26,865 nucleotides of DNA from Candidatus Sumerlaeota bacterium (GCA_016928995.1 JAFGJS010000147.1:1-26865); one strand, 5' to 3'. Counted from the first letter of the stretch, positions 4,941 through 18,775 are shown. Numbers and translations are program-made. Notes: generated by a model not told the origin, from the letters alone.

Positions 4941-5555
4941 CTAACGACGACCAATATTCAAAGACATAACACATCTGAAAGCAATGGCCGAGAAAATAGT
5001 AATTAAAGCGATAAAAATATATTTAATGAATGGAAATTTACTGCTAGGCATGTCGCGAGAAAAAGTAATCGCAATGTGAGACCATGATTTCTCCAATTCC
5101 TGATCGGATATTTCTTTCCTTTGTTCTCCGTCAAATACAACAAACTTTCCATCCGATATTGAATGGTCAAAATAAACAAAGTGATTCGCTGTATTATTCT
5201 TCTTTTCATCCCACTTTATCCAAAGTATTGTTGGCAAATTAATGTCCTTCAATTCATCAATCGTCACATTTTTATATGTATTCATTCGAACATTATAACG
5301 GTCAGCCATTTCTTTCAATTGCAACGCACTTACCCCCATACCCTCCACTGGAGGTGCGATCTCCAATAAATCCCTTAATTTCGCATCAACGCCAATCCTC
5401 TTTAAGCAATAATACAGCGAGGTATGACCACAAATATCATTGCGGCCCACTTGCTTATTAGAGTACAATATGACGCCATTAGCAGCAAATGAGAACAAAC
5501 TCATCGGCAAATACAAAAATAAAAATAAATATACTTTCCTTGACATTGACATCAT
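4941..5555 (-). CDS. Membrane-anchored stand-alone C39 family peptidase
   Basis: A 204-residue protein. Residues about 7-25 are a signal sequence; about 28-155 match a papain-like C39 (double-glycine leader) protease; about 176-196 form a C-terminal membrane helix. Probable catalytic residues are Cys42 (DICGHT), His125 (NHFVYFD) and Asp142 (VVFDGE), with spacings of 83 and 17 close to those of known C39 domains; Gln35 could form the oxyanion hole. The MGVSALQLKEMADRYNV segment (73-89) is also typical. In bacteriocin exporters C39 is fused to an ABC transporter, but here it stands alone and should face the periplasm. The likely substrate is the GG-leader peptide encoded two genes upstream. The start overlaps the previous stop (ATGA); ATG 5546 is an alternative. 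Confidence 0.75.
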   Translation of the reverse strand: MMSMSRKVYLFLFLYLPMSLFSFAANGVILYSNKQVGRNDICGHTSLYYCLKRIGVDAKLRDLLEIAPPVEGMGVSALQLKEMADRYNVRMNTYKNVTIDELKDINLPTILWIKWDEKKNNTANHFVYFDHSISDGKFVVFDGEQRKEISDQELEKSWSHIAITFSRDMPSSKFPFIKYIFIALITIFSAIAFRCVMSLNIGRR

Positions 5556-6796
5556 CTCTTTTTATAAAAATAAATGTAAACTAATCCGAGTATAATTAAA
5601 ACTACTATAATCAATATGGAATATAACAAGCCGACATTTTGACTTTTTTGTATAGTGACACTATTTGTTTGCGGGTTAACGACGTAATGATCACTAGTCA
5701 GCTGATCATTGTCATTACTGATTTGATCTTTATTTTCAATATCATTATTCTGCTGATCATCCTTGCTTTTTAGTTCTTTTTGCATTGTTCTTATATTTGC
5801 AACCAGTTCGGCTTCAAGCGAGTCAATGTCATCTGGAAGCAGAATATTGTTATTGCCCGCTCTATATACAATATCTGCATTAATATCTGCAATCATTGCG
5901 CCTTCAGGCCAAATAATATCGAATTGATCAATATCCGGGGCCATTTCCAGTAGATGGATATTATCCACAGTTATTGAAATATCTTGATTGTACTCTTTAT
6001 TATTCGCAATTGTACGCAATTTCCCTTTTGCTGAAACGGCAATCCAAGTTGAGCCAATGAGTTCATACTGAACATCAAAAAAACTAAAATCACGCTCTTG
6101 TGTTCCCTCCCAATATTCTGCATCATCGTTAAAATGTCCTAATTCCCTTTTTCTTGATATTCGAGCAGATTGAATATTATATGATTTTTGTGGATTGACT
6201 TCGATATAGTAATCACCCCTTTTCGTTTCAGATTGCAAAACATATACTATATCTTCACCTTCCTCTCTTACTTCCATTGATGTTTTTTCCAAATTATCAC
6301 TAAATATTTGATATATTGGTTGCGCATCTTCGAACATCAAAAAACGAAGCCAATTTCCCGATGATATTTCACCCATCAATCTCATCCACATATTTTTTGA
6401 AAAACTATCATTGAGTATATCATCATGGTTCATCGCCATAAAACTCCCTGCACCATTCGGGAATTTATCACTATTTAAAGTATTCCAGTTTTTTTGGCGG
6501 GAACCATTATAACTATGAATACTACGACGCGATTCGTTGCCAGCAATCCATAACTCTTTCTGCATGAGAAAATTATTATCATATTGCAACAATGTCACTA
6601 TTTCCTTAACAGTAGAACCGCTGATATCATCGTTAATAGTCTCAAAAGTATTAACTGAGGATCCACGGCTAATAATGTGATGAGTCTCTTCCATTTTTTT
6701 AAGCACGGAACCTATATTTTCAGTACTACTTGCTATTAGTTCACTTATTTGGAATAAGAAAATTAACACAATATATTTCAATAATAATTTCGACAT
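5552..6796 (-). CDS. Exported, C-terminally anchored protein (LolA-like fold possible)
   Basis: A 414-residue protein with a signal peptide (about 1-23), a large beta-rich extracytoplasmic part, a low-complexity Asn/Asp/Gln stretch (about 345-370) and a C-terminal membrane helix followed by KKR. The middle, with repeated strand patterns such as DYYIEVNPQKSYNIQSARI and the WEGTQERDFSFFDVQYELIG region, resembles lipoprotein-carrier (LolA/VioE-like) proteins seen in planctomycetes, but I cannot confirm this. The start at 6796 is well supported: GGAGG lies eight bases upstream, just after the hairpin that follows the peptide gene. It shares its topology with the C39 protease that follows and overlaps it by four bases, so the two may form a membrane complex acting on the peptide. 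Confidence 0.7.
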   Translation of the reverse strand: MSKLLLKYIVLIFLFQISELIASSTENIGSVLKKMEETHHIISRGSSVNTFETINDDISGSTVKEIVTLLQYDNNFLMQKELWIAGNESRRSIHSYNGSRQKNWNTLNSDKFPNGAGSFMAMNHDDILNDSFSKNMWMRLMGEISSGNWLRFLMFEDAQPIYQIFSDNLEKTSMEVREEGEDIVYVLQSETKRGDYYIEVNPQKSYNIQSARISRKRELGHFNDDAEYWEGTQERDFSFFDVQYELIGSTWIAVSAKGKLRTIANNKEYNQDISITVDNIHLLEMAPDIDQFDIIWPEGAMIADINADIVYRAGNNNILLPDDIDSLEAELVANIRTMQKELKSKDDQQNNDIENKDQISNDNDQLTSDHYVVNPQTNSVTIQKSQNVGLLYSILIIVVLIILGLVYIYFYKKR

Positions 6797-6825
6797 CGAT
6801 TTATCCTCCGGAAAAAGATGAAGAT

Positions 6826-6856
6826 GCTCTGCCAATGCGATCAACATTGGCAGAGC
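6826..6856 (-). promoter_or_regulatory. Intergenic hairpin after GG-peptide gene
   Basis: Perfect 12-bp arms GCTCTGCCAATG and CATTGGCAGAGC enclose a 7-base loop. The hairpin starts eight bases after the peptide stop codon and ends about 16 bases before the GGAGG ribosome site of the next gene. There is no strong T-run next to the stem, so it is more likely a partial terminator or an mRNA stabiliser that raises peptide output relative to downstream genes, as is common in bacteriocin operons. Confidence 0.65.
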
Positions 6857-6863
6857 AGTAGTA

Positions 6864-7166
6864 TCAGGCGCAAGTTTTTTGAGTACAAGTCGGAGTGACT
6901 GTTGGATTGTTGCAACCATCTTTATTATCTTTACAGCCACATAAACCGTGAGTGCATTTTGCACCCGCATATGCCGCAGTCAAACATCCCAACGTTGATG
7001 GACACAAAAATATTGTATCACACCCCGAAGCCCCACCGATAATTAGCGCCAGTTCATTTTGCGATTTGATTTTATTATAATCATTTGAACCTGGCTGCCA
7101 AATAGTGATGATTGCACAAATCATCATCAATCCACAAATAGTCGACACAGCGCTTTTTTTAGCCAT
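6864..7166 (-). CDS. Cys-rich peptide precursor with double-glycine leader
   Basis: A 100-residue precursor. Residues about 6-23 form a hydrophobic signal or membrane segment. Residues 33-45 fit the double-glycine leader consensus: Ser35 (-11), Glu38 (-8), Leu39 (-7), Ile42 (-4), Gly44 and Gly45. Cleavage after Gly45 would release a 55-residue peptide with nine cysteines (49, 55, 61, 71, 76, 78, 85, 94, 99) and many Gly, Thr and Asn, consistent with a disulfide-rich or metal-binding product. The start is preceded by AAGGAG seven bases upstream, the best ribosome site in the operon. It lies 11 bases after the DUF1573 gene and is followed by a strong hairpin. The leader match is seen; bacteriocin, signal or structural roles are guesses. 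Confidence 0.75.
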   Translation of the reverse strand: MAKKSAVSTICGLMMICAIITIWQPGSNDYNKIKSQNELALIIGGASGCDTIFLCPSTLGCLTAAYAGAKCTHGLCGCKDNKDGCNNPTVTPTCTQKTCA

Positions 7167-7177
7167 AATTAATCTCC

Positions 7178-8278
7178 TTATTGTTTTAGCAATACCTTGT
7201 CATCGCCAGCGTGCTTAAATTGAATTACCTCCTTTCCTTGCGATTTTTTTATAATGATACCCGCAACACTAACGATGCATATTTTTTCATCATTATACTT
7301 TGATTTTACATAAATTTTTATAACATCGTTCACTAGACCAGCCTCAACGGGCAATAATGAAATCTCTATAGTATGAGCATCTTTGCTGATCGTTGCCTCT
7401 GTTGCTTCAAATGCATGTGGTATCTCATAGTCTCTGATCCCAAACCTATTTGACTCATCAGAGTTTTTTAATTCTAATGATACAACAATTTCTTCACCAA
7501 CAGATACAACACCAAAATCTATTCGCTCTGGTTCTATCTTGACTCTATCTTCTATAATACCGCTAATCTGCATATTTCGATAAATTATAATATTTTCAAT
7601 ATTCTTCCCCCATAGAACCAGTGTGTCTTTGAATTTCCCTGATGGAATCATTTTCTTCTCGGTCAATACCATTTGATAAGCAGCTTCATTTTTGATTGGA
7701 TGAATTTCAATCTTCCAATACTGTGGCTCCTGCTCAATACCGATCTCCCATTTTGACTCTACGCCAATTTTCACTTCCTCTGAATATTGCCGACCTTCGA
7801 GCAGTTTTCCTAGCCTGATTTCCGATTCTTCTATATGCAATGGATCATACACTGTACCGCAAAATTCAATTTTTGCCTCATCCAAAATAATTCTAGCGCC
7901 ATCTTTATTAACGACTGGCCATGCGTATAGATGAAATTGTTTTGAAATCTCATCGATATGCGTCTTCTCAAAATTAATCACAGCTTTAAACATTGCTGAC
8001 CGTCCAGGCTGTATCTTCTGGCTATTCGGTGCAATATCAAAACAATTGCAGGATTGTTTGAAGCCGAGAATATACACCTCCCTTGAAGAACTGCTTAATG
8101 TGAGATTAAACTGAACCTCAAAGTGGTTCGTTTTTGGTGTTCTCCCAATATCAACCAACGGCGCCTTAACTTGAATACTATTACGATGATCTTCGACTGT
8201 ATTACATGCGCATTGCAGTATCGATATAACACAAATTACATATCTTAATGTTTTGCAGTGACATTTTTTTCTGCTCAC
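7178..8278 (-). CDS. Exported DUF1573-type protein, probable lipoprotein
   Basis: A 366-residue protein. After a basic start (SRKKCHCK) comes a hydrophobic segment ending in ILQCAC (Cys23/Cys25), a weak lipobox. Residues about 45-145 fit the DUF1573 / Ig-like pattern: strand-rich, with SCNC (Cys77, Cys79) and then an I-x-PG turn. A second domain (about 255-340) repeats the pattern (IDFGVVSVGEE, then LKNSD) without the Cys pair. DUF1573 genes are often found with small exported peptides and C39 proteases or redox proteins in Bacteroidota and PVC bacteria, but their role is unknown. I chose GTG 8278, four bases after the previous stop, with GGGGTGAG upstream; the frame continues upstream into the neighbour but without need. 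GC content drops sharply at this gene. Confidence 0.7.
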   Translation of the reverse strand: MSRKKCHCKTLRYVICVISILQCACNTVEDHRNSIQVKAPLVDIGRTPKTNHFEVQFNLTLSSSSREVYILGFKQSCNCFDIAPNSQKIQPGRSAMFKAVINFEKTHIDEISKQFHLYAWPVVNKDGARIILDEAKIEFCGTVYDPLHIEESEIRLGKLLEGRQYSEEVKIGVESKWEIGIEQEPQYWKIEIHPIKNEAAYQMVLTEKKMIPSGKFKDTLVLWGKNIENIIIYRNMQISGIIEDRVKIEPERIDFGVVSVGEEIVVSLELKNSDESNRFGIRDYEIPHAFEATEATISKDAHTIEISLLPVEAGLVNDVIKIYVKSKYNDEKICIVSVAGIIIKKSQGKEVIQFKHAGDDKVLLKQ

Positions 8279-8282
8279 TTTC

Positions 8283-8945
8283 TCACCCCGCGATGGTTGC
8301 CATGACGGTTTCGGACCAGGGGCCGGGTTCTTGACGGCTGTTGACCCAGCGGGCGGCCCACCAGGCGTTCTTGCCGGCGTCGGCAGTTTCAAATTGGTAC
8401 ATGTAAGGCGTGGCGGAGTCGTACGCCACGTATTGCATGGCGTTCACGTCCGGCGGGGCGTCGCCGCCGACAAAAACGTACAATTGAATTCCAGCCACGC
8501 CGTCGGGCTTTTTGCGGCTGTTCGGCGTGGCGGTGTCGGCGAAGCGGATCGTATGCGCCAGGCGCTCGCCGCTGTCGATCACCAGCACGGGGCGCGACGT
8601 GGGGACTCCGGCGCGGGTGCGCGTGCCGCTGTAAACCGGCAGTCCAGCCTCCTCGCGCATCGCATCGGTCATCGCGGGATTGCTCTGGCAGCGCTGGGAA
8701 TATTGCCGCAGCAGCGGTTCGTAGCCCTCGCGGCTGTTATCCTTGCCCTCGGTGGCGGCGCGGGCGGCGGTTTGCGCCGCGAGATGGCTGTCGTACGCCG
8801 CGTCCCAGGTTTGGCTTCCGTTTTGCAGCGCAAGCAATTCCGCCTCGTCAAAACCGAGCGTCGCTCCGTTGGTCTGGATGAAGGTGTTGAATTGCCCTTG
8901 CCAAAGATTAAACTCCGCGTCGGCGGCTGGGATGTAATCGGCCAT
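8283..8945 (-). CDS. Helical plus FN3-like protein, function unknown
   Basis: A 220-residue protein with no signal peptide. Residues about 3-95 are helical and rich in Ala and Gln (AAQTAARAATEGKD at about 66-79). After a linker, residues about 105-215 look like a single fibronectin-III-type domain, ending with WWAARWVNSRQEPGPWSETV. The layout (MADYIP... then an Ala-rich helix, then an FN3-like sheet) is one I associate with repeated hypothetical proteins in PVC-like genomes, but no function is known to me. Start ATG 8945 has GAGGAG eight bases upstream and is preferred over an ATG nine codons earlier. It is GC-rich, unlike the island that begins four bases after its stop. Confidence 0.7.
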   Translation of the reverse strand: MADYIPAADAEFNLWQGQFNTFIQTNGATLGFDEAELLALQNGSQTWDAAYDSHLAAQTAARAATEGKDNSREGYEPLLRQYSQRCQSNPAMTDAMREEAGLPVYSGTRTRAGVPTSRPVLVIDSGERLAHTIRFADTATPNSRKKPDGVAGIQLYVFVGGDAPPDVNAMQYVAYDSATPYMYQFETADAGKNAWWAARWVNSRQEPGPWSETVMATIAG

Positions 8946-8974
8946 GATCAAAACTCCTCGTGGTGGGATCAATG

Positions 8975-9520: not shown

Positions 9521-9547
9521 AGAGAGAGAGAGAGAGAGAGAGAGAGA
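9521..9547. repeat. (AG)n dinucleotide microsatellite
   Basis: An uninterrupted AG run of 27 bases lies in the non-coding region about 330 bases upstream of queF. Such tracts can vary in length by slippage. No gene or promoter spacing visibly depends on it. Confidence 0.85.
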
Positions 9548-16692: not shown

Positions 16693-18546
<1,854 letters not shown>

Positions 18547-18775
18547 GGTGTGCACCCCCAAATTCGTTCCGGCGCTGTTTGATGCGGCGCATCGCAACGA
18601 TCGCAGTCTTTCTCTCGGCGTTCCCTAAAAATGATTTTGGCCGCAACGGCATAAGATTCATCGTCTCAAGCGGATGAAAGGCGTTTCGCCGCCTCGTGGC
18701 GTCGTTGCGGTGGATTTCAGGGGCTCCTTTTAATATAGACTCCGGTTGCGCGATAAATATCCAAAAAAAATTCCG

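What the first reader, a model, noticed from the sequence alone, without database searches (positions are those of the whole stretch)
4941..8278. Operon for export-then-cleave processing of a double-glycine Cys-rich peptide
DUF1573 protein, GG-leader peptide, C-terminally anchored LolA-like protein and stand-alone C39 protease form a tight minus-strand operon with gaps or overlaps of a few bases. All four proteins carry export signals. In known systems C39 is cytoplasmic and fused to an ABC exporter; here the protease should face the periplasm, so the peptide would be exported first and cut later. This is an inference from topology.
Basis: partly seen in the sequence, partly recalled or inferred. 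Interest (0 to 1): 0.88.

Follow-up and report, generated by a model that had tools for sequence, protein, structure and literature searches.

The report
Periplasmic peptide-maturation operon in Sumerlaeota bacteria
An uncultured bacterium carries a small gene set that probably sends a cysteine-rich peptide out through the inner membrane first and only then trims off its leader with a protease sitting outside the cytoplasm; the same set recurs in related bacteria, and a few similar 'cut it outside' systems are already known.

Summary
The operon is real: DUF1573, Cys-rich peptide with a double-glycine leader, an anchored protein possibly of the LolA type, and a stand-alone C39 peptidase. The C39 and DUF1573 calls pass Pfam cut-offs; the C39 model matches solved double-glycine peptidases. 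The locus recurs: a second, very divergent copy in the same genome and copies in three other families of the phylum (Candidatus Sumerlaeota). In two copies, and probably a third broken by a contig end, C39 is fused to DUF1573, a second sign that the protease faces the periplasm. The genome has no C39-ABC transporter. Best reading: signal-anchored precursor, core outside, cut in the periplasm. Topology, cleavage and peptide function are inferred. New variant of a known kind.

The parts
7178..8278 (-). DUF1573 (Ig/ASH-like) protein, 366 aa, GTG start, 4 nt after the upstream gene; probable but weak export signal
   Evidence: Pfam PF07610 E 3.8e-7; the domain is fused C-terminally to C39 in L034 and L032 and, by profile match, in L038
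6864..7166 (-). precursor peptide, 100 aa; Shine-Dalgarno AAGGAG
   Evidence: homologous leaders in L034, L032, L033, L090
7032..7166 (-). leader (45 aa): N-terminal positive residues, hydrophobic helix, then KIKSQNELALIIGG
6867..7031 (-). predicted mature core, 55 aa, 9 Cys
   Evidence: cleavage site inferred
6825..6857 (-). stem-loop between the peptide and LolA-like genes; probable attenuator or mRNA-end element
   Evidence: perfect 13-bp arms, terminator-like scan with a 14-pair stem, z -4.8; an unrelated but equally strong hairpin at the same place in copy 2, z -5.8
5552..6796 (-). periplasmic protein with signal sequence and C-terminal transmembrane helix (414 aa), tentatively LolA-like
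   Evidence: family conserved in L034, L033, L032; LolA link only hhalign 61-85% over 35-45 residues
4941..5555 (-). stand-alone peptidase C39, 204 aa, signal sequence and C-terminal helix; Cys42, His125, Asp142
   Evidence: Pfam PF03412 E 4e-14; AF2 pLDDT 73, Foldseek best 3k8u 5e-7 and 6mpz 8.7e-7
8283..8972 (-). GC-rich gene of unknown function directly upstream; a near-identical copy (88% DNA over the last 138 nt seen) also precedes copy 2; membership of the unit uncertain

Best explanation
A peptide-maturation locus of the outer side of the inner membrane. The precursor is inserted by Sec/YidC through its N-terminal hydrophobic helix, with the leader end and Cys-rich core in the periplasm. 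The C39 peptidase, itself periplasmic (tethered by a C-terminal helix here, by an N-terminal helix and fused to DUF1573 in relatives), binds the amphipathic leader segment (-12/-7/-4) and cuts after GG or a GG-like pair, releasing a 55-120-residue disulfide-rich peptide. DUF1573 is a scaffold or substrate-holding partner of the protease. The anchored, possibly LolA-like protein is a chaperone or carrier for precursor or product. The hairpin behind the peptide gene lets the peptide be made in excess over its processing proteins. Shown: gene content, conservation, fusions, fold and catalytic residues of C39, leader register, absence of other C39 domains. Inferred: topology, cleavage, disulfides, roles of DUF1573 and of the LolA-like protein, role of the hairpin, fate of the peptide.
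For: C39 profile best matches solved double-glycine leader peptidases LahT, PCAT1, ComA, and the model agrees. Six related C39 loci in 5 of 40 phylum genomes; four of them (W, W2, G008, G037) show peptide, LolA-like, C39 and DUF1573 together in two layouts: DUF1573-pep-LolA-C39 (W, G037) and pep-LolA-C39::DUF1573 (W2, G008). A fifth, G013, is split by a contig end. C39::DUF1573 fusions argue for a shared, extracytoplasmic place. A leader profile of four peptides found the fifth peptide as the only other plausible hit among those inspected. Only two C39 domains in the whole genome, both here, so no PCAT is available for these leaders. The G008 leader weakly matches TIGR04149, a GG-leader model (E 9e-4, under cut-off). 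Precedent: FapD needs its catalytic Cys and works from the periplasm.
Against: GG is missing in 2 of 5 leaders. The usual C39 Gln before the Cys is at -7 here (expected near -6) and absent in relatives. The Asp of the triad is missing in G008 and G037, and the G037 C39 frame holds an in-frame TAG. Signal and helix calls rest on hydropathy only. Some precursors could also be cut by signal peptidase I. No outer-membrane exporter is seen nearby, and no FapF-type (PF13557) channel in the genome. Genome incomplete (92%).
Confidence: 0.62

Rival explanations
1. The C39 protein has largely lost proteolysis in this family and acts as a leader-binding holder, like the C39-like domains of RTX exporters; the peptide stays membrane-anchored or is cut by signal peptidase I.
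For: Leader ends AE/EA and GY in two loci; triad Asp missing in G008 and G037, His replaced in G011, conserved Gln not kept; in-frame TAG in the G037 C39.
Against: Cys and His kept in all five loci that have a peptide; the only member without the His (G011) has no peptide gene in the 1 kb upstream that its contig holds. Full Cys-His-Asp in W, W2 and G013.
Confidence: 0.2
2. A signalling unit: the peptide is a pheromone or stress reporter, and the LolA-like anchored protein is an RseB-like sensor tied to an ECF sigma/anti-sigma pair.
For: G008 has an ECF sigma factor and a zinc-finger anti-sigma-like membrane protein directly upstream of the peptide gene; RseB has a LolA-type fold (general knowledge).
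Against: No sigma pair seen beside W, W2 or G037; LolA fold itself unproven.
Confidence: 0.1
3. A redox or cofactor-protein maturation locus, in which the Cys-rich polypeptide is a periplasmic structural or electron-transfer subunit rather than a secreted peptide.
For: MauE-type membrane proteins lie near the G008 and G011 loci, with a rhodanese in G011; cores carry 9-15 Cys.
Against: No such genes seen at W, W2 or G037; cores share no alignable Cys pattern, unlike a conserved subunit.
Confidence: 0.08

Closest known systems
FapD/FapF functional amyloid (Fap) system of Pseudomonas
   Same: Stand-alone C39 with Sec signal, proteolytically needed in the periplasm (PMC5557850)
   Different: Fap subunits lack a canonical leader and FapD's target is unsettled in the papers read; Fap has a FapF pore, not found here; no DUF1573 or LolA-like partner described there
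nap island of Neisseria (NapA-C, NapP, NapF)
   Same: Small GG-leader peptides with a stand-alone C39 and a proposed periplasmic cut (PMC11798529)
   Different: Cationic peptides, FapF-like pore; here Cys-rich precursors with a membrane helix, DUF1573 and an anchored, possibly LolA-like protein
PCAT / LahT / ComA double-glycine peptidases
   Same: Same peptidase fold and catalytic residues; same -4/-7/-12 leader register (PMC10885120)
   Different: There the domain is cytosolic and fused to an ABC exporter
FilB, 'putative pilus system C39 peptidase' (NF050078)
   Same: Another stand-alone C39 family; copy 2 scores E 6e-6 but far under cut-off
   Different: Known to me here only by its model name; not a member
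TIGR04149 GG-leader peptides of Bacteroidetes
   Same: Leader of the G008 peptide resembles it (19.1 bits; cut-off 25)
   Different: No radical SAM enzyme recognised in these loci; an N-terminal membrane helix precedes the leader

Membership tests
Peptidase C39 | Pfam C39 match over cut-off and C39 fold | tested here: met
   53 bits against cut-off 22; Foldseek ComA, LahT, PCAT1
Peptidase C39 | Catalytic Cys-His-Asp | tested here: met
   Cys42, His125, Asp142 in the window protein; Asp not kept in G008 and G037, His not in G011
Peptidase C39 | Conserved Gln before the Cys | tested here: inconclusive
   Gln35 sits at -7 in W; not present in relatives
Double-glycine leader peptides | Hydrophobic residues at -4, -7, -12 then GG | tested here: met
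   W: Ile-4, Leu-7, GG met; -12 is Lys (Ile at -13). Relatives: hydrophobic register met in 4 of 4, GG in 2 of 4
PCAT (C39-ABC) systems | C39 fused to an ABC exporter | tested here: not met
   204-aa protein; no other C39 in the genome outside copy 2
Fap/Nap export systems | FapF-type outer-membrane channel | tested here: inconclusive
   No PF13557 match in the genome at E 0.01; that FapF belongs to this Pfam family is from memory, and the search was nearly silent in the controls too, so the test is weak
Fap/Nap export systems | FapD-family membership of the C39 | tested here: not met
   14.3 bits against cut-off 330
LolA/LolA-like | Pfam LolA-clan match or LolA fold | tested here: inconclusive
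   No Pfam match; AF2 unusable, pLDDT 34; hhalign 61-85% on the C-terminal 35-45 residues against bona fide phylum LolA proteins, reversed decoy 0.5%
DUF1573 | Pfam match over cut-off | tested here: met
   30.5 bits against 26.1

The most novel reading that the evidence does not exclude
A distinct pathway in which precursors are inserted as single-pass membrane proteins, form disulfides in the periplasm, are held by DUF1573 and handed to a LolA-like carrier, and only then are released by a periplasmic C39 peptidase that has relaxed its GG requirement; folding before leader removal is the opposite order to PCAT bacteriocins.
Probability: 0.25. Interest if true: 0.75.

Novelty: new variant of a known kind. 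Interest (0 to 1): 0.56.

Why it matters
Periplasmic C39 peptidases are few, and the substrate of the best studied one, FapD, was still unsettled in the papers read. Here protease and an obvious leader-bearing substrate sit side by side, in several lineages, with protease-DUF1573 fusions. That makes the question of how a periplasmic C39 recognises and cuts its substrate directly testable, gives DUF1573 (function unknown) a concrete setting, and points to a family of Cys-rich peptides in an uncultured phylum.

Tried and rejected
LolA-like structure: AF2 with four rows gave pLDDT 34, not used. Solved structures: no match for that family. The single scan of named genomes returned only phylum members already in hand, so occurrence outside Sumerlaeota is untested, not excluded. 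Plasmid searches gave ABC-type C39 and Bacteroidetes DUF1573 only; the one stretch that seemed to span both domains, in a Nostoc plasmid, is an ordinary C39-ABC transporter. PHROGs: no match. Other weak leader-profile hits opened (L088, L089, L091, L092, L098) showed no such peptide. Literature: no paper holds DUF1573 together with 'C39 peptidase' or 'double-glycine'. NVEALA peptides of Bacteroidetes, recalled as similar, gave no Pfam match and no paper.

Full report
Observation. The four minus-strand genes are present. The C39 protein (4941-5555) matches Pfam C39 at E 4e-14 and the first protein (7178-8278, GTG start) matches DUF1573 at E 3.8e-7. The peptide (6864-7166) has a hydrophobic helix at residues 5-23 and, 22 residues later, the end of a double-glycine leader, NELALIIGG, before a 55-residue core with 9 Cys. 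The LolA-like ORF listed from 6970 begins inside the peptide gene; ATG 6796 behind CCGGAGGA is the better start, giving a signal sequence. So the peptide and LolA-like genes are 67 nt apart, and that gap holds a perfect 13-bp hairpin (6825-6857), fold z = -4.8. The operon is AT-rich (about 33-43% G+C) inside a region of mostly 55-65% G+C, which suggests a foreign origin.

Where it lies. The window is contig C36 of a 4.5-Mb, 92% complete genome. Relatives in the same class carry the name Candidatus Sumerlaeota in public records. The phylum is thinly sampled: 40 genomes held.

Conservation. A sequence search with the window C39 alone finds nothing else in the phylum, but the C39 family search does. 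Reading neighbourhoods gave: G037 (L033), same order as the window, DUF1573 - peptide (...LDQALGVSGG^CSC) - LolA-like with C-terminal helix - C39 with C-terminal helix, the C39 frame broken by one TAG between signal and domain; G008 (L032), ECF sigma - zinc-finger protein - peptide (...LSDSQMQAIHGG^DCC) - LolA-like - C39 fused to DUF1573; and a second copy in the window's own genome (L034), peptide (...VSDSELDTIVAEA-TCGP) - LolA-like with helix - C39 fused to DUF1573. G013 has another C39::DUF1573 fusion starting 35 bp from a contig end (L038). A profile of the four leaders then found, at E 0.045, a fifth peptide in G013 (L090...LSENQLKGITGYCVC, Cys-rich) followed by a signal-bearing protein running off a contig end; the two ends are compatible with one locus, but the join is not proven. 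That second G013 protein is LolA-like by position only: it scores below threshold with the family profile. G011 has a C39-like::DUF1573 fusion with the His replaced, beside a rhodanese and a MauE protein, and no peptide in the 1 kb upstream held. Divergence is large: C39 domains are 17-24% identical to the window's and cores are not alignable, so the shared content and order are not recent copies of one stretch.

The protease. Against solved structures the six-member C39 profile is closest to LahT, PCAT1 and ComA, the double-glycine leader peptidases (E 5e-14 to 4e-9). The AF2 model (pLDDT 73) agrees: 3k8u 5e-7 and 6mpz, LahT with leader bound, 8.7e-7. Cys42, His125 and Asp142 are present; Cys and His are kept in all five peptide-bearing loci, Asp in three (W, W2, G013). 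Weak points are the shifted Gln and the missing Asp in G008 and G037.

Topology, inferred. C39: signal-like N-terminus, C-terminal helix followed by a positive tail (NIGRR). LolA-like: signal-like N-terminus, C-terminal helix ending in KKR. Peptide: positive N-terminus, helix, then leader. By the positive-inside rule all three domains face the periplasm. The fusion of C39 to DUF1573 in relatives supports the same side. There is no alternative protease of this type: the genome has two C39 domains in all, both in these operons, and neither is fused to an ABC transporter.

Leader. In a common register (G013 added by eye) the residues at -12/-7/-4 and -2/-1 are: W K,L,I, GG (Ile at -13); G008 L,M,I, GG; G037 I,A,V, GG; copy 2 V,L,I, AE; G013 L,L,I, GY. 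LahT needs hydrophobic residues at -4, -7 and -12 (PMC10885120). The recognition part is thus better kept than the cut site.

The LolA-like protein. No Pfam match for any of four members, no usable model, no solved relative. A profile comparison with true LolA-family proteins of the phylum (Pfam LolA E about 1e-12 to 1e-20) gives 61-85% probability over 35-45 residues at the matching C-terminal end, against 0.5% for the reversed set. Plausible, not settled.

Expression. Both copies in this genome have a strong hairpin directly behind the peptide gene, of unrelated sequence (z -4.8 and -5.8), while G037 and G013 do not. Independent occurrence suggests a function, such as raising peptide over enzyme levels; whether it terminates is unknown (the T run is interrupted).

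Known systems. FapD carries a Sec signal, works in the periplasm and needs its Cys (PMC5557850); its target was still open in a 2018 review (PMC6173800). In the Neisseria nap island a stand-alone C39, NapP, is proposed to cut GG peptides in the periplasm (PMC11798529). So 'export, then cleave' by C39 is not new in kind. New here are the membrane-helix precursors rich in Cys, the DUF1573 partner including fusions, the anchored LolA-like partner, and no recognisable FapF channel (a weak test).

Verdict. A real, conserved maturation locus.

Noticed in passing
window 8283-8972 and L034 9321-9458: The same GC-rich gene, 88% identical in DNA over the 138 nt visible, lies directly upstream of both very divergent operon copies; similarity stops near the gene end. 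It may mark a preferred insertion point or a recombination hotspot.
   Followed up: partly
L033 10438-10440: In-frame TAG between the signal sequence and the C39 domain of G037; error, pseudogene or read-through cannot be told apart here.
   Followed up: no
L039 2-2282: C39-like::DUF1573 fusion lacking the catalytic His, followed by a rhodanese and a MauE/DoxX membrane protein: possibly a non-proteolytic offshoot with a redox role.
   Followed up: partly
L032 7828-12385: ECF sigma factor, two zinc-finger membrane proteins and a MauE-thioredoxin-like protein next to the G008 locus.
   Followed up: partly
window 9521-9547: Perfect (AG)13.5 dinucleotide array upstream of the operon, in a moderately AT-rich stretch without a recognised gene.
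   Followed up: no
window 17401-18600: Strong AT skew (-0.37 to -0.41) over about 1.2 kb.
   Followed up: no
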